This document shows, piece after piece, positions 47,246 to 58,662 of a stretch of DNA of 58,662 nt (its first letter is position 1; every line of letters begins with the position of its first letter). The DNA lies in assembly GCA_944380725.1 (NCBI GenBank), contig CALWIK010000022.1, positions 1 to 58,662 of the forward strand. The letters run 5' to 3'. This stretch comes from an uncultured Clostridia bacterium (GTDB taxonomy: Bacteria > Bacillota > Clostridia > Oscillospirales > Acutalibacteraceae). Made by a program: the position numbers and the translations under genes. The notes beneath the pieces are model-generated. The model was not told where the DNA came from. It did no database searches and saw only the letters and a list, made by a program, of their open reading frames with translations.

Positions 47246-47330
47246 GCGGGTGTGGCGGAATTGGCAGACGCGCTAGATTTAGGTTCTAGTGGCAAACACC
47301 GTGCAGGTTCAAGTCCTGTCACCCGCACCA
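47246..47330 (+). tRNA. tRNA-Leu (TAG)
   Basis: 85-nt class II tRNA with 7-bp acceptor stem (GCGGGTG/CACCCGC), anticodon loop TTTAGGT (anticodon TAG), a long variable arm and encoded CCA. Confidence 0.96.
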
Positions 47331-53679: not shown

Positions 53680-54093
53680 ATGACGAAGAGGGAATTATCT
53701 CAGTTGAGACATTTAAAGTTCGAAGCAAGAGAATTAATCGACAGGATAAAAGAGCTTGAAAGTACAGCAACGAGTGTGAGTTTGAGGACAAATTGCCTGC
53801 CGAGGGTGCAAACAGTTTCGGACAAAGTTGGAGGATACGCTGCAAAAATAGTAGACTTAAAAAAAGAGCTAGATAAAAAATTGTGTCAAATATACCGAGA
53901 GTATGTCCGCCTGAACCGGCATATAGCAAATATTGAAGACAGCCAAATGCGAGCAATCTTAGCCTTGAGGTACATAAAAGGATTCACCTGGCAAAAAATA
54001 GCATATATGATAGGAGAAAGTGATGAGCAGTATCCGCGTAAAAAACATAATGCTTTTTTAGAAAATAGTAGCGAGTTTGGAGCAGAAAAATGA
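53680..54093 (+). CDS. DUF1492-type phage regulator (sigma-like HTH)
   Basis: 137 aa: an N-terminal coiled-coil region, then a sigma-70 region-4-like helix-turn-helix (RAILALRYIKGFTWQKIAYMIG). Proteins of this type (ArpU/RinA-like) sit before the packaging genes and activate late transcription. AAAGGAGG precedes the ATG. The stop overlaps the next start (ATGA). Confidence 0.8.
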   Translation: MTKRELSQLRHLKFEARELIDRIKELESTATSVSLRTNCLPRVQTVSDKVGGYAAKIVDLKKELDKKLCQIYREYVRLNRHIANIEDSQMRAILALRYIKGFTWQKIAYMIGESDEQYPRKKHNAFLENSSEFGAEK

Positions 54094-54947
54094 GTATAAT
54101 TCTAAAACAAGCAACGCATCTATGTGTTGAAGAAATTCGGCTACAAGGCGCTTATTATACCAGTGAGGAAAACATTTTAAAATTGATTAACCCCTTCTTT
54201 CTTGAAGATTTGGAAAACGAGTTTGAAGCTGCGAAAGATGATTTGACAAAATTGCACAAATTACATAACAAAATCTCCAATCTGGAGTTTTTAGATCCGG
54301 CTTGTGGTGGAGAAATTTTTCTACTCATTACCTATATTTGCCTTTTAGAACTAAAAAATAAGATTATGATGTAGCTTAAAGAGCAGAACGAAAAAATCTG
54401 TTCAAAAGTAAGTACCAGACAATTCTACGGCATTGAAATTGACAAAAATGCTGTACTGCAAGCTTTAAACAGCATCAAAAAATTGACATCAGGCAAAAGT
54501 ATGCCCAAAATATTGGCAGCAAATGCCTTGCAGATAGATTGGAATCAGATAGTTTCTAAAAAAGAATTAAACTTTATCATCTGGAATCCACCATTTATCG
54601 GAACCTATAGCAAAAATACGGAGCAGAAGCATGATATGGATAAAGTTTTTGGTAAAAAGACAACGCATGGACTTCTAGATTATTTGTGCGTGGATGAAAA
54701 AGTCTGCTGAATTTATGGGAAATACAAAAAGTATGGCGATCTAAAAATAGGTGGGCAAGAAGAAATTATTGAAAAGCAGGAAAAAATGGAGTTACCGTGG
54801 GAGATGCGAATTTTATTTTCTGAAAAAGGAATAGAAAAAGTTCACGATATCAACGAAACATTAGGAAAATACGGAGAACTTTCTGCATGGAAACTTGTAG
54901 AGATAACACACAAAGAAGATACACCCTGGGCATATTCTTATAATTGA
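54090..54947 (+). pseudogene. Broken adenine methyltransferase fused to a DUF4065-like remnant
   Basis: The N-terminal part (GAYYTSEENILKLI, FLDPACGGEIFLL as SAM motif I) ends at an in-frame TAG (54372-54374). The same frame resumes with FYGIEIDKNA and the N6-adenine motif IIWNPPFIG. A frameshift near 54690 follows, since the neighbouring frame reads WMKKSAEFMGNTK, the expected continuation. From about 54715 to 54947 the frame encodes KYGDLKIGGQ and SAWKLVEITHKEDTPW, the C-terminal half of a DUF4065/Panacea-type protein. The gene is clearly decayed and deleted internally. Confidence 0.72.
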
Positions 54948-55016: not shown

Positions 55017-55081
55017 TGTAGCGAGGGTAAGTCCGGGCAAAGTACGGTTTGTCACTCCTTTATATGGGGGTGATAATTTTT
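55017..55081 (+). promoter_or_regulatory. Toxin mRNA leader with sequestered Shine-Dalgarno (copy 1)
   Basis: From 55027 the leader aligns nearly base for base with 57797-57852. UCACUCC (55052-55058) pairs with GGGGUGA (55067-55073) over a loop of 8 nt, burying the ribosome binding site. A second CCG...CGG stem lies just upstream. A possible promoter, ACGAAA-18-TAAAAT, is at 54958-54987. Confidence 0.7.
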
Positions 55082-55171
55082 ATGACAATAGACTCGTTAA
55101 TGATTTTACTAATTTTTATATTATTTTTCTTAACTTTAAAGATTGGCATAAAAAATAACTGCCCCGTCTAA
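55082..55171 (+). CDS. Type I toxin-like hydrophobic peptide (29 aa)
   Basis: Encodes MTIDSLMILLIFILFFLTL followed by the basic tail KIGIKNNCPV: one membrane helix with a short polar end, the plan of TxpA/Bsr or 'putative holin-like' type I toxins. It has a strong but sequestered GGGGGTGAT ribosome binding site. The paralogue at 57853 has a premature stop. The downstream convergent antitoxin gene present at copy 2 is not intact here. Confidence 0.68.
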   Translation: MTIDSLMILLIFILFFLTLKIGIKNNCPV

Positions 55172-55234
55172 AAGTGCAGATATTTTTAGATGATCCCCTA
55201 AAGAAACCAGCAGAAAACCACGTTTTATGACATA

Positions 55235-55266
55235 AAAAACACCTTAAATATTAAAGGTGTTTTTTA
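55235..55266. terminator. Bidirectional terminator
   Basis: 12-bp stem (55235-55246 with 55255-55266, 8-nt loop) of the A-tract/T-tract type between the toxin and the minus-strand gene; it includes the latter's stop codon. Confidence 0.85.
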
Positions 55267-55595
55267 AAAACTTTTTTATGAGCTTCTAAATTGCCAACAT
55301 AGAGTATTCCTTTTAATAACCCGCAGTTACTATCTTTCATAATTTTTTTTATTGCTTCTTTCTTTCTGCCTTCTTGAAGTAACTTCTTTATTTCTTCATC
55401 ATTTACATTTTCAATTTTTTTACTTTTATTTTTTATGAACCAGCCCAGCTGAAATAGAAAAACAAAAACAAAATAAAAAATCTTAGCTATATCCAACCAT
55501 CTACTTTTTTCTTCAATAGTAAACGTCAAAATAAGAAGAATACCACCCATAATTAGCAAAAACATACACTGTATTAAATACATTCTTTTTTTCAT
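55251..55595 (-). CDS. Two-span membrane protein with bL12 C-terminal-like domain
   Basis: 114 aa. Two hydrophobic helices (about 5-25 and 35-55) are followed by a cytosolic NDEEIKKLLQEGRKKEAIKKIMKDSNCGLLKGI, like the C-terminal domain of ribosomal protein bL12 seen as a module in many small proteins. It follows the secreted protein gene by 6 bp, so the two form one unit; a partner or immunity role is possible but unproven. Confidence 0.65.
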   Translation of the reverse strand: MKKRMYLIQCMFLLIMGGILLILTFTIEEKSRWLDIAKIFYFVFVFLFQLGWFIKNKSKKIENVNDEEIKKLLQEGRKKEAIKKIMKDSNCGLLKGILYVGNLEAHKKVFKKHL

Positions 55596-55601
55596 ATTAC
55601 A

Positions 55602-56300
55602 TTACCCCGCACAATTTTTCATAATTCCATCTATACCTAGAATTGTAGTAAATGCCTGGACAACAATTGGACCAAACGCAATAGCAATCGTTGTTAAAGA
55701 ATGTGTGCCTACAATTAAACCGATAAGCATTTGAGCAAATACAGATAATCCTCCAACTATTTTAATAGCTTTTTTTATTTGTATTATTTTTGCCGCAGGA
55801 ACTACTAGAGAAGCTAATAACCCCGCAATCGAAGCAATACATACTGTAACCTGCCAAGCATTCGGATCAGCTGTAATTGGAAATGAACTATTACATGAAT
55901 GGTCTACTGTTTGAGTAAGTATATTTTCACTAACATTAAAATATGTAGGAACTTCATTTCCGCTTGAATCAATAGCCCACGGCTTATCTATAATTTGCTT
56001 AATTTTATTATAAGCATCTATCAAAAAAACTTCACCAGTATCAAAATCTTCTCCTAAGTAATCTCTTGCTGTTATAAGTGATTCACCTGGATTTAAATTG
56101 AACTTAAAATTATACAATTTACTTGCATTACAATTATTTATAGTGAAAACGCCTTTTGAATTTCCATTAGTTCGTGTGATAGTAACATCAGAATTTTTAT
56201 AATCAAAATTATATGGTTCAATATTACTTGCGCAAGTTAGATTATTTCCCATTTGCACAATTAATACAAAAGACAAAATACATCCGGTTATTTTTTTCAT
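55602..56300 (-). CDS. Secreted protein with ADP-motif and hydrophobic C-terminus
   Basis: 232 aa. Signal peptide at residues 1-24. A soluble domain follows, ending in NILTQTVDHSCNSSFPITADP, a motif seen in many secreted proteins of Gram-positive bacteria just before a variable C-terminal region. Residues 150-232 hold about three hydrophobic helices rich in Ala, Val and Ile. The layout resembles bacteriocin-like or membrane-active secreted proteins; function unknown. GAGG precedes the ATG. The small membrane protein downstream is co-transcribed. Confidence 0.65.
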   Translation of the reverse strand: MKKITGCILSFVLIVQMGNNLTCASNIEPYNFDYKNSDVTITRTNGNSKGVFTINNCNASKLYNFKFNLNPGESLITARDYLGEDFDTGEVFLIDAYNKIKQIIDKPWAIDSSGNEVPTYFNVSENILTQTVDHSCNSSFPITADPNAWQVTVCIASIAGLLASLVVPAAKIIQIKKAIKIVGGLSVFAQMLIGLIVGTHSLTTIAIAFGPIVVQAFTTILGIDGIMKNCAG

Positions 56301-56336
56301 TTCTATCTAAACCTCTTGATACAATTTTTTAAGTTC

Positions 56337-56345
56337 ATTATATCA
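56337..56345 (-). promoter_or_regulatory. Extended -10 promoter of the secreted protein gene
   Basis: On the minus strand TGATATAAT (TGn plus TATAAT), 37 bp upstream of the ATG; no clear -35. Confidence 0.55.
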
Positions 56346-56446
56346 CAAGAAGTTCTAAAAATAATATAATTTAGTATTTTCTACCTATTATATAAACTAT
56401 ATTTTATATTTTTTTGTTTTTTGTTATTTTTAAATTATATTTTTTA

Positions 56447-56506
56447 GGACAGACCACATTTTAAGCGACTGTCTTTTATTATGGCACTAAAGATAGAAAA
56501 TATCAA
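56447..56506 (-). ncRNA. Orphan antitoxin-like promoter and RNA start (copy 3)
   Basis: Matches the antitoxin end of copy 2: the GGACAGACC..TTTT.AGCG segment and the TTTTATTAT(A/G)GCACTAAA box recur. On the minus strand it gives TTGATA (56501-56506), 17 bp, CATAAT (56478-56483). The predicted RNA would start near 56471 and fold a GACAG/CTGTC stem. No toxin lies next to it. Confidence 0.5.
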
Positions 56507-56510
56507 TAAA

Positions 56511-56630
56511 AATTTTTTGACAAAATTATTTTTCTAAGAATATAAAAAATTCAATGTAAAGATATCTTTTTATTAGTAAATTTTAAGCAACTGCAAAAAA
56601 ATATTATTAATTTTTAAGTCTATGTAAGTA
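56511..56630. other. AT-rich spacer
   Basis: No open frame or structure recognised between the orphan antitoxin promoter and the zinc-ribbon remnant. Confidence 0.4.
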
Positions 56631-56875
56631 TTATTCAATATCCCAGCTGTTGCCGCAGCCCTGACAAAGAGCAACCTTCTTTGTCTTTATTTTTGTAGTC
56701 TCATTCCCTATTGATTTTTTCCAAAACAAATTAGAAAGCCCAAGAGTACATATAGCAACTAAAGATCTTGCCATGTTATTTGTAATGCCACCAATACCAT
56801 TTCCATGTTTGTTTTTGCTGAAAGCTGCTCAAGTTGAACACTTACATTTTTTCCTCCACATTTTGGACATACCAT
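56631..56875 (-). pseudogene. Frameshifted small zinc-ribbon protein
   Basis: Starts MVCPKCGGKNVSVQLEQL. After a one-base shift near 56815 it continues in another frame through a hydrophobic segment (SLVAICTLGLSNLFW) to KKVALCQGCGNSWDIE. Both zinc knuckles (CPKC and CQGC) are present. Such Zn-TM-Zn proteins of unknown function are common in mobile elements. Confidence 0.6.
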
Positions 56876-57267
56876 AATTTACCCCTTGTCTTTTAAAAAA
56901 CTTGTTTAAAAACATACCAATATTTTCGTTTTAGTTAATAATAAATTCTTATGAATTTGTCAATATTTTTTATCACAATAAGCCTATTATGACTTTAATA
57001 GCAGAAAAAACAAGAAAAAATTTTCCTGTATTGTACCATTCATGAAATTATATTCAGGTTTTAATAATTTAGCGTGTGAGAAATATAAAATTATTTACGG
57101 AGTACTAAGTAGAAATGTGCTTATTTTGTGAAAAAGGATAGATCGGTAAAAGCTCGGAAGAACTCGAAAGAGAAATTTTTACCTAATAAAAATAGTTAAA
57201 AGTAACCTTTGTATAGCGCTTATAGGCGAATTGATTAAAATATGCAAAAAACATTTAAATAAAAAAA
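56876..57267. other. Gene-free stretch
   Basis: About 390 bp without a credible gene. A GGTAAAA/TTTTACC pairing (57145-57151 with 57177-57183) encloses two CTCG(A/G)AAGA repeats, and an 8-codon frame after GGAG at 57113 looks like a remnant. Confidence 0.45.
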
Positions 57268-57298
57268 TACGAATAATACGAATAAAAAGTTGTATAAT
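57268..57298 (+). promoter_or_regulatory. TACGAA direct-repeat promoter, copy A
   Basis: TACGAA at 57268-57273 and 57277-57282 (9-bp period), and TATAAT at 57293-57298. From the end of ACGAAT to the -10 is 18 bp, identical in copies B, C and D. Confidence 0.6.
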
Positions 57299-57304
57299 AA
57301 AGAA

Positions 57305-57391
57305 GCTGTCAAATTTTTTATTTTTTCATTGTCTCCTAAGTTTTTAAATTTCGCAGAGATGCATACTAACAAGAGTGGTGTGCATCTTTTT
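57305..57391 (+). ncRNA. Predicted short RNA A
   Basis: From the start expected after copy A to a terminator with a 10-bp stem (57357-57366 with 57378-57387, 11-nt loop) and five T. About 85 nt, with no ribosome binding site or open frame inside. Confidence 0.5.
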
Positions 57392-57472
57392 ATATTAATT
57401 GGAATTGAAAAAAATTCAATAGCAATAGCCCAATTTAAAAATTAGATTGCTAAGTTAGAATGAGGTGATTTT

Positions 57473-57559
57473 GTGTTGCATGAAATTTTAGTCGTAGCTG
57501 CAGGAGTTTTATTAGCAGATTTAATTAAAACAATCAGCCAGAAAATAAAAATTTTCTAG
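57473..57559 (+). CDS. 28-aa peptide of the LVVAAGV family
   Basis: GTG start with GAGGTGAT upstream. The peptide has LVVAAGVLLADLIKTISQKI, an amphipathic or membrane helix with a basic end, and is closely related to the 41-aa peptide at 58071. Both are preceded by GGTGATTTT and followed by an ACGAA repeat promoter. Function unknown; a toxin or signal are possibilities. Confidence 0.55.
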   Translation: MLHEILVVAAGVLLADLIKTISQKIKIF

Positions 57560-57572
57560 GAAAAATAAATTT

Positions 57573-57603
57573 TACGAAAAATACGAAATAAGAATAGTAA
57601 AAT
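57573..57603 (+). promoter_or_regulatory. TACGAA direct-repeat promoter, copy B
   Basis: TACGAA at 57573-57578 and 57582-57587, TAAAAT at 57598-57603. Same spacing as copy A. Confidence 0.6.
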
Positions 57604-57608
57604 AAAAG

Positions 57609-57680
57609 TGTGAGCAATAAGCTCACCATTTTGCCTTAAAATGTGAGGACATCAAGATTGATGCCCTCAATTTTATTTTA
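57609..57680 (+). ncRNA. Predicted short RNA B
   Basis: About 70 nt: a 6-bp hairpin (57610-57615 with 57621-57626), a linker, then an 11-position terminator stem with one mismatch (57644-57654 with 57659-57669) and ATTTTATTTTA. Confidence 0.5.
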
Positions 57681-57691
57681 TAAAAAAGTTT

Positions 57692-57722
57692 TACGAAAAG
57701 TACGAAAATAAAATGATAAAAT
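57692..57722 (+). promoter_or_regulatory. TACGAA direct-repeat promoter, copy C
   Basis: TACGAA at 57692-57697 and 57701-57706, TAAAAT at 57717-57722; upstream of toxin copy 2. Confidence 0.6.
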
Positions 57723-57751
57723 ATAAAATGGAAAATATACTAAAGTAGACC

Positions 57752-57780
57752 TTGAAAATTTGTCGAAAATTCAGCATAAT
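57752..57780 (+). promoter_or_regulatory. Second promoter of toxin copy 2
   Basis: TTGAAA (57752-57757), 17 bp, CATAAT (57775-57780), just before the conserved leader. Confidence 0.6.
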
Positions 57781-57796
57781 GAAAACCATAACAAGA

Positions 57797-57852
57797 GTAA
57801 GTCCGAGCAAAGGGCGGCTTGTCACTCCTAAGTATAGGGGGTGATAACTTTT
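57797..57852 (+). promoter_or_regulatory. Toxin mRNA leader with sequestered Shine-Dalgarno (copy 2)
   Basis: Same leader as copy 1. UCACUCC (57822-57828) pairs with GGGGUGA (57838-57844) over 9 nt. Conservation of both arms while the loop varies supports the fold. Confidence 0.72.
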
Positions 57853-57930
57853 ATGACTATAGACTTAATAATTACTTTACTAACTTTTGTAACGTTTTTT
57901 TAAATTCTAAAAATAGACATAAAAAAATAA
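57853..57930 (+). pseudogene. Type I toxin-like peptide, copy 2, with premature stop
   Basis: Encodes MTIDLIITLLTFVTFF and then TAA at 57901-57903; after the stop the frame still reads ILKIDIKK to 57930, matching the tail of copy 1. Either an inactivated toxin or a 16-aa short form. Confidence 0.6.
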
Positions 57931-58011
57931 TCGCCCTGGCTAAAGGTTGCGATTATTTTCTATAAAAGCTTCAAATGGACAGACCGCCTTTTGAGCGGCC
58001 AACTCTTGTTA
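57921..58011 (-). ncRNA. Predicted antisense antitoxin RNA of copy 2
   Basis: Promoter on the minus strand at 58018-58046. The RNA of about 90 nt would run leftward through a CCGC/GCGG hairpin to a perfect 11-bp terminator (57924-57934 with 57949-57959, 14-nt loop) followed by seven T. It is complementary to the 3' end of the toxin mRNA, which uses the same hairpin as its own terminator: the convergent layout of TxpA/RatA-type modules. Confidence 0.68.
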
Positions 58012-58017
58012 CTTTTT

Positions 58018-58046
58018 ATTATAGCACTAAATTTTAGATTTAGCAA
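58018..58046 (-). promoter_or_regulatory. Antitoxin promoter, copy 2
   Basis: TTGCTA (58041-58046), 17 bp, TATAAT (58018-58023), with TG extension before the -10. Near-consensus and strong. Confidence 0.78.
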
Positions 58047-58070: not shown

Positions 58071-58196
58071 ATGTTGAACAAGGTTTTAGTTGTTGCCGCA
58101 GGTGTTATGTTAGCAGATATTCTTAAAAGTTTAGCCGATAAAATTGCGAAATTCATAAGCAAAAATTTGACGAAAAAGACGAATTTAAAATATTAG
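58071..58196 (+). CDS. 41-aa peptide of the LVVAAGV family
   Basis: ATG with AGGTGAT upstream. MLNKVLVVAAGVMLADILKSLADKI is followed by a Lys-rich tail. Paralogue of the 28-aa peptide at 57473. Its last codons overlap the ACGAA repeat promoter copy D. Confidence 0.55.
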   Translation: MLNKVLVVAAGVMLADILKSLADKIAKFISKNLTKKTNLKY

Positions 58197-58270: not shown

Positions 58271-58662
58271 ATGGAGATGAACATAATTCAAAAGTCGTGT
58301 AAATACTGCGGGAAAATCCATGCTGAAGGGCACAGTTGCAGTAGGAAGCCGAAAAAGCGCAAGAGAATTGATGAAGCTGTAAAGTTTAGAAATTCTGCAG
58401 TCTGGCAAGCCAAGCGACAGCAAATCAAAACGCGGGACAATTATCTCTGCCAGGTGTGCATCAGGGATTTGTACAACACCTGGAGAAGATACAACCACCA
58501 AGGTTTGCAGGTTCACCATGCGATGCCTATTGGGGAAATCAAGAATTACGGCTTGAAAACAGCAATCTTATTACGCTTTGCCCAATGCATCATGCTATGT
58601 GCGACCGAGGCGAAATTCCTTATGACGAGGTCAAAAAAATAATTACTGAACAAGAAAGGACG
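58271..58662 (+). pseudogene. HNH endonuclease, frameshifted, runs off the window
   Basis: Phage HNH nuclease of the kind found before terminase genes. A zinc ribbon (CKYCGKIH) is followed by RQQIKTRDNYLCQVC and the catalytic VHHAMPIGE. Near 58549 the frame shifts by one: the neighbouring frame carries the expected LENSNLITLCPMHHAMCDRGEIPYDEV to the window end. The first ATG has no spaced ribosome binding site; GGAG at 58273-58276 fits an ATT at 58286 better. Confidence 0.72.

What the first reader, a model, noticed from the sequence alone, without database searches (positions are those of the whole stretch)
55017..58046. Type I toxin-antitoxin family with two toxin copies and a convergent antisense RNA gene
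Two leaders (55027-55081 and 57797-57852) align almost base for base, both bury GGGGUGA in a stem with UCACUCC, and both lead to a short membrane peptide starting MTID. At copy 2 a near-consensus minus-strand promoter (58018-58046) and a perfect terminator (57924-57959) define an RNA of about 90 nt antisense to the toxin 3' end. This is the TxpA/RatA-like architecture. The sequences were not recognised as a known family.
Basis: partly seen in the sequence, partly recalled or inferred. Interest (0 to 1): 0.8.

Follow-up and report, generated by a model that had tools for sequence, protein, structure and literature searches.

The report
Prophage toxin-antitoxin RNA pair, partly decayed
A prophage in a Clostridia-like bacterium carries two damaged copies of a tiny membrane-toxin gene controlled by an antisense RNA, a divergent relative of toxin-antitoxin modules already known from Bacillus and other Firmicutes.

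Summary
A leader model built without the window finds both copies (E 4e-15 and 1.3e-13), and complete leader-peptide-antisense units occur in relatives and two IMG/VR contigs. The type I, TxpA/RatA-like reading holds, with three corrections. (1) The family is not unknown: Rfam BsrG matches copy 2 full length (31.5 bits, E 5.4e-5, below its gathering score 55) and nine relative units (26.1-46.0 bits); a unit of the same layout encodes Pfam Hol_Tox above cutoff. (2) Neither window copy is intact. Copy 1 has no promoter match, 3' arm or antisense gene. Copy 2 keeps the antisense gene, but its toxin ORF stops at codon 17; relatives have intact 25-residue ORFs. If the toxin mRNA reads through the antisense terminator, its ends form a 26-pair helix with covariation (35 two-sided cells against 10.9 shuffled), as in BsrG. 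Verdict: new, divergent member of a known kind. Transcription, read-through and toxicity are not shown.

The parts
57752..57780 (+). Predicted toxin promoter of copy 2 (TTGAAA-17-CATAAT)
   Evidence: 10 of 12 letters; such patterns are at chance density in the region
57789..57845 (+). Copy 2 toxin leader: 5' arm of the inverted repeat, then SD-burying hairpin
   Evidence: R1 51.7 bits, E 4e-15; fold
57853..57903 (+). Copy 2 toxin ORF, stops after 16 residues (relatives 25)
   Evidence: relatives
57924..57959 (.). Hairpin after the family stop position; antisense-RNA terminator (longer U-run on the minus strand)
57978..58012 (-). Antisense-RNA leader, same sequence type as the toxin leader; read on the plus strand it is the 3' arm of the inverted repeat
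   Evidence: R1 15.0 bits, E 0.0011; arm test
58018..58046 (-). Antisense promoter (TTGCTA-17-TATAAT, TG)
   Evidence: spacing kept in 11 of 11 loci
57920..58011 (-). Predicted antisense RNA, about 90 nt
   Evidence: inferred from promoter and terminator; fold -27.0 kcal/mol, z -2.97
57787..58018 (+). Predicted read-through toxin RNA with 5'-3' helix
   Evidence: fold -74.2 kcal/mol, z -7.25, 0 of 200 shuffles as low; RF01412 match 57789-58014
55017..55074 (+). Copy 1 toxin leader
   Evidence: R1 46.8 bits, E 1.3e-13
55082..55171 (+). Copy 1 ORF, 29 residues, runs past the usual family stop
   Evidence: same frame as 55049-55171
55150..55187 (.). Copy 1 counterpart of the terminator hairpin, diverged
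   Evidence: 74% identical to 57922-57959 (D7)
56447..56506 (-). Orphan antisense leader and promoter relic without toxin gene
   Evidence: 74% and 70% identical pieces (D8 and D6); TTGATA-17-CATAAT

Best explanation
A prophage-borne type I toxin-antitoxin family of the BsrG/TxpA/Hol_Tox sort. In intact relatives a membrane peptide of about 25 residues, mostly with a lysine tail, is translated from an mRNA whose SD is buried in a leader hairpin. A convergent antisense RNA of about 90 nt is complementary to the 3' part of that mRNA and silences it, by duplex formation and cleavage and/or by blocking translation. The toxin mRNA most likely runs through the antisense terminator, and its two ends then close into a long 5'-3' helix that keeps the full-length message inert. 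Shown by sequence: homologous units, SD hairpin, inverted repeat, covariation, conserved antisense promoter. Inferred: transcript ends, pairing in cells, toxicity, the nuclease. In this window copy 1 is a relic, and copy 2 keeps its antisense gene beside a truncated toxin ORF, so local function is probably reduced or lost.
For: Leader model; units in relatives and viral contigs; RF01412 on copy 2 and nine relative units, with a 14-genome control ringing only in B. subtilis; antisense promoter in 11 of 11; own arms match better than permuted arms (mean 29.9 against 18.8, maximum 22.1 of 5000 permutations); 26-pair helix 94.7% paired against 86.6% shuffled, 35 two-sided cells against 10.9, at most 12 when slid; fold z -7.25; all six Hol_Tox loci fetched carry the same repeat; prophage genes around.
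Against: All RF01412 matches are under the gathering score (0 of 300 genomes over it). No Pfam or NCBIfam match for the subfamily peptides tested. 7 of 34 units fail the arm shuffle limit; G001 fails also when its arm is placed correctly (88 of 500). The strand test is weak: G.U 72 against A.C 20, but mismatched units give 293 against 155. L043 shows no gain of end pairing in the longer RNA (14 against 15 pairs). The helix was derived from the alignment on which it was counted, and the rows are related. Copy 2 itself has some U-run (TTTT) on the toxin side. No expression data.
Confidence: 0.78

Rival explanations
1. Fst/par-like ending: both RNAs stop at one bidirectional terminator, and the shared leader is only a duplicated promoter and first transcribed region whose two copies evolve in step.
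For: Copy 2 has TTTT after the hairpin on the toxin side, and some relatives have T-runs of 4-5 there. The G.U/A.C strand test did not clearly single out toxin-strand pairing.
Against: Mean longest T-run 3.1 on the toxin side against 5.5 on the antisense side over 34 units; two-sided changes that keep pairs; RF01412 matches across the read-through stretch.
Confidence: 0.25
2. In this genome the locus is only debris: both toxin ORFs are damaged and the antisense gene is a passenger with no present role.
For: Copy 1 has no promoter match, 3' arm or antisense gene; copy 2 stops at codon 17; there is an orphan antisense relic; no third copy at E below 1e-3 in the own genome (40 of 60 first-look candidates scored); the neighbouring methyltransferase-like gene is broken.
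Against: Copy 2 keeps promoter, SD hairpin, repeat and antisense gene in good order. An assembly error at a homopolymer cannot be excluded for copy 1.
Confidence: 0.5
3. The peptide is a phage holin-like or other small membrane protein, and the antisense RNA tunes lysis rather than acting as an antitoxin.
For: Prophage setting; the Pfam name 'Putative Holin-like Toxin'.
Against: Units stand in tandem fours in G099 and resemble BsrG, a studied type I toxin.
Confidence: 0.1

Closest known systems
BsrG/SR4 of B. subtilis (Rfam RF01412)
   Same: Full-length covariance match with SD hairpin, 5'-3' pairing in the Rfam consensus structure, convergent antisense RNA; [quoted passage not shown]
   Different: Scores under the gathering cutoff; peptide of about 25 residues instead of 38; antisense RNA about 90 nt instead of 180 (paper figures)
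Hol_Tox, putative holin-like toxin (PF16935)
   Same: Six fetched Hol_Tox loci have the same inverted repeat; L040, found with RF01412, is over the Pfam cutoff (35.2 bits against 23.3)
   Different: The subfamily peptides tested do not match PF16935
TxpA/RatA of B. subtilis
   Same: Convergent overlap at the 3' ends with two facing hairpins (passages); prophage-like setting
   Different: Sequence comparison with txpA itself was not made; TxpA has 59 residues (passage)
Fst RNA I/RNA II (par of pAD1)
   Same: Convergent RNAs that share a terminator hairpin (passage)
   Different: par uses direct repeats for pairing; here the repeat is inverted

Membership tests
RF01412 BsrG | Covariance score at or above the gathering score of 55 bits | tested here: not met
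   Copy 2 31.5 bits; relatives 26.1-46.0 bits
RF01412 BsrG | Significant full-length match with the consensus structure | tested here: met
   Copy 2 model 1-259, E 5.4e-5; nine relative units E 3.4e-8 to 0.0099, one of them over 1-231 only
PF16935 Hol_Tox | Peptide matches the profile | tested here: not met
   No match for copy 1 and copy 2 ORFs or three relative peptides of the subfamily; own genome none
Hol_Tox-type locus | Unit-bounding inverted repeat as in Hol_Tox loci | tested here: met
   6 of 6 Hol_Tox loci beat 500 shuffles; copy 2 0 of 500
Type I toxin-antitoxin (TxpA/RatA-like) | Convergent antisense gene overlapping the toxin 3' end | tested here: met
   By sequence only: promoter 11 of 11, terminator hairpin
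Type I toxin-antitoxin (TxpA/RatA-like) | Peptide toxic, antisense RNA neutralises it, RNase III cleavage | not testable with these tools
   Needs experiments
Fst/par | Direct repeats linking the 5' parts of the two genes | tested here: not met
   Leaders related in inverted orientation; no direct-repeat family among the 18 joins leader and 57977-58011

The most novel reading that the evidence does not exclude
Across BsrG/Hol_Tox modules the unit-bounding inverted repeat is one conserved RNA lock. The toxin leader can pair first with the hairpin arm at the stop codon (nascent message) and then with the 3' arm (full-length message), a two-step safety like that of hok or aapA in Gram-negative bacteria, while the antitoxin RNA starts with a copy of the same leader. 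The antisense genes kept beside broken toxins here might then serve as anti-addiction elements against incoming modules.
Probability: 0.3. Interest if true: 0.55.

Novelty: new member of a known kind. Interest (0 to 1): 0.38.

Why it matters
It adds a divergent branch, with peptides of about 25 residues, in uncultured Clostridia and their phages that the peptide models used here do not detect. It also suggests that the inverted repeat with covarying arms, rather than the peptide, may be the better signature for finding such modules, and it makes a long-range lock in Hol_Tox messages directly testable.

Tried and rejected
Phage records by blastn with the copy 2 unit gave none; an exact long leader pattern in IMG/VR gave none; a shorter pattern gave two viral contigs. 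Of the 6 genomes matched, the matches in G113 and G116 are short pieces without a full unit. L064 is a chance match inside a coding region. Of the 26 RF01412 loci printed, five were left out of the arm test: L041, L046, L052, L053 (no unit seen) and L055 (unit-like, left out by me). In one search, 7 of 34 units failed the limit of 5 in 500 shuffles: G001, L070, L040, L042, L044, L049, L056. I suspected a misplaced arm for G001, but the retest still failed (88 of 500). Of five further loci found with the leader model and tested, three passed (for one of these the script chose a doubtful ORF), one failed (L075, 306 of 500) and for one no ORF was chosen. The G.U/A.C strand test was not decisive. 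Alignment A1 held two units in the wrong orientation and is not used as evidence. The covariation alignment A2 used 16 of the 34 units, the closest ones. A3 placed the SD run badly, so R1 was built as sequence only. In one search the script picked another hairpin in at least three of 34 units. The B. subtilis sequences were not compared directly (AF020713 not held).
Full report
Observation. The window is one contig of a 1.08 Mb genome in 23 contigs. A sequence model made from 15 relatives without the window finds both leaders at E 4e-15 and 1.3e-13. The promoter pattern alone is at chance density (21 found, 23.1 expected), but the same pattern with the same 17-base spacer precedes 11 of 11 antisense leaders.

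Relatives. blastn of the copy 2 unit matched 6 of 198 genomes, the own one included. Full units were seen in the own genome, G001, G002 and G099; the other two matches are short pieces. G002 (same genus) has two units with 25-residue ORFs; G099 (same family) has four in tandem and two on other contigs; G001 has one. A pattern scan of genome contigs gave 9 stretches: 5 are those same genomes, 3 are further Clostridia contigs (L067, L068, L070), 1 is chance. Two IMG/VR viral contigs also carry units (L090, L091). Peptides that stop at the usual place have 21-25 residues and are hydrophobic, mostly ending in KK. Three ORFs run past that place: window copy 1 (29 residues), one G099 unit (36) and G001 (77). 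The leader model found matches at E 0.001 or better in 14 of 394 genomes of the order, the own one included, mostly partial.

State of the window copies. Copy 2 has leader, promoters, hairpin and antisense gene, but its ORF stops at codon 17, where relatives have 25 residues. Copy 1 has a leader and a diverged hairpin, an ORF that runs on, no promoter in the scan and no antisense gene. An orphan antisense leader and promoter lies at 56447-56506. No third unit in the own genome has a blastn E-value below 1e-3; the next best is 0.0031.

What it is. At gathering thresholds Rfam gives three tRNAs only. With E-values shown, RF01412 BsrG matches copy 2 over model 1-259 (31.5 bits, E 5.4e-5) and nine distinct relative units (26.1-46.0 bits, E 3.4e-8 to 0.0099; 13 rows, four of them repeats from overlapping loci). 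In 300 genomes of the family 23 have a match at E 0.01 or better and none is over the cutoff; of 14 control genomes only B. subtilis rings. Some of these loci look like chance. L040 encodes a Hol_Tox peptide over the Pfam cutoff, and three others score below it. Hol_Tox matches 33 of 291 genomes of the class, 31 over cutoff, not the own genome; controls ring in B. subtilis and L. lactis. I therefore file the locus as a divergent relative of BsrG/Hol_Tox modules, not as a strict member of either model.

Inverted repeat and long-range helix. The antisense RNA starts with the same leader as the toxin mRNA; the toxin-leader model finds it on the minus strand (57978-58012, 15.0 bits, E 0.0011). Over 34 units with the promoter masked, 27 have at most 5 of 500 shuffles as good, and own arms score 29.9 on average against 18.8 for permuted partners (maximum 22.1 in 5000). 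In 16 aligned units (of the 34) a 26-pair helix joins the two ends of the read-through RNA: 94.7% of 415 cells paired against 86.6% shuffled, 35 two-sided cells against 10.9 (0 of 500), 10 pairs with two-sided change against 5.9 (1 of 500), and at most 12 two-sided cells when slid by 1-3 columns. The structure came from the same alignment and the rows are related, so this is strong but not independent. The copy 2 RNA folds at -74.2 kcal/mol, z -7.25. In 11 of 12 units folded the longer RNA has more pairing between its ends than the RNA stopped at the first hairpin; L043 does not (14 against 15 pairs). The strand test leans towards the toxin strand (72 G.U, 20 A.C; 40 and 12 with one unit per cluster), but mismatched units lean the same way (293 and 155), so it is only suggestive. 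The antisense-side U-run is longer than the toxin-side one (5.5 against 3.1). All 6 Hol_Tox loci fetched have the repeat. In 16 of 16 units the leader core can pair both with the hairpin arm at the stop codon and with the 3' arm, with duplex energies from -9.9 to -23.9 kcal/mol; a switch between them is inference.

Mechanism. In txpA/RatA the two RNAs overlap by about 120 nt, txpA has its own terminator about 270 nt from its start, hairpin loops face each other and RNase III degrades the duplex; in bsrG/SR4 the antitoxin also tightens the SD stem, and it contacts the 3' part of helix P1 (passages of PMC3531473, PMC6562991, PMC7430163, PMC4147584; section 5 of PMC6563280). The units here fit that plan. 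A long helix in the toxin message is thus not new in kind. My searches listed no paper whose title or abstract start describes an inverted repeat bounding Hol_Tox loci; I read passages of six papers only, so this is not a claim that it is unpublished.

Setting. Around lie phage genes: Sak-like, RusA, SSB-like, replication initiator, DnaB, a DUF1492 transcription regulator and an HNH gene. The window shares 80-83% DNA identity stretches with L063 of G002, where units lie on both sides of methyltransferase-like genes (those genes named by me from their sequence, not by a call).

Noticed in passing
57473-57559 (+) and 58071-58196 (+): Two paralogous short peptides (28 and 41 residues, sharing LVVAAGVxLAD) beside copy 2, each after a GGTGATTTT ribosome-site-like stretch; the first is 86% identical in G002 next to its unit. 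No Pfam match; one NCBIfam match at E 0.066 is chance-like.
   Followed up: partly
57268-57300, 57573-57605, 57692-57724 (+); also contig C14:652-684 (-): Direct-repeat box TACGAANNNTACGAA about 12 bases before a -10-like TANNAT; six matches in the genome with up to 2 mismatches against three for the reversed pattern, three of them within 460 bases here. On C14 it lies before an HNH-like gene related to 58422-58660. Possibly a phage promoter with an operator.
   Followed up: partly
57606-57680 (+): Possible small RNA with two hairpins behind one of these boxes (sequence reading; the first hairpin is).
   Followed up: no
54090-54947 (+): Broken MmeI-like methyltransferase start (PF20473, E 3.9e-9) and fragments related to an ORF of G002 that lies next to its first unit.
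   Followed up: partly
55602-56300 (-): Predicted secreted or membrane protein with a weak match to phrog_25631 of unknown function (E 6.9e-7), between the two copies.
   Followed up: no
L071:5529-6777: Four head-to-tail units; the third keeps leader and antisense half but has a different peptide of the same kind, which suggests peptide exchange within a conserved RNA frame.
   Followed up: no
47246-47327 (+): tRNA gene at the edge of the prophage-like genes; a possible integration site, not tested.
   Followed up: no
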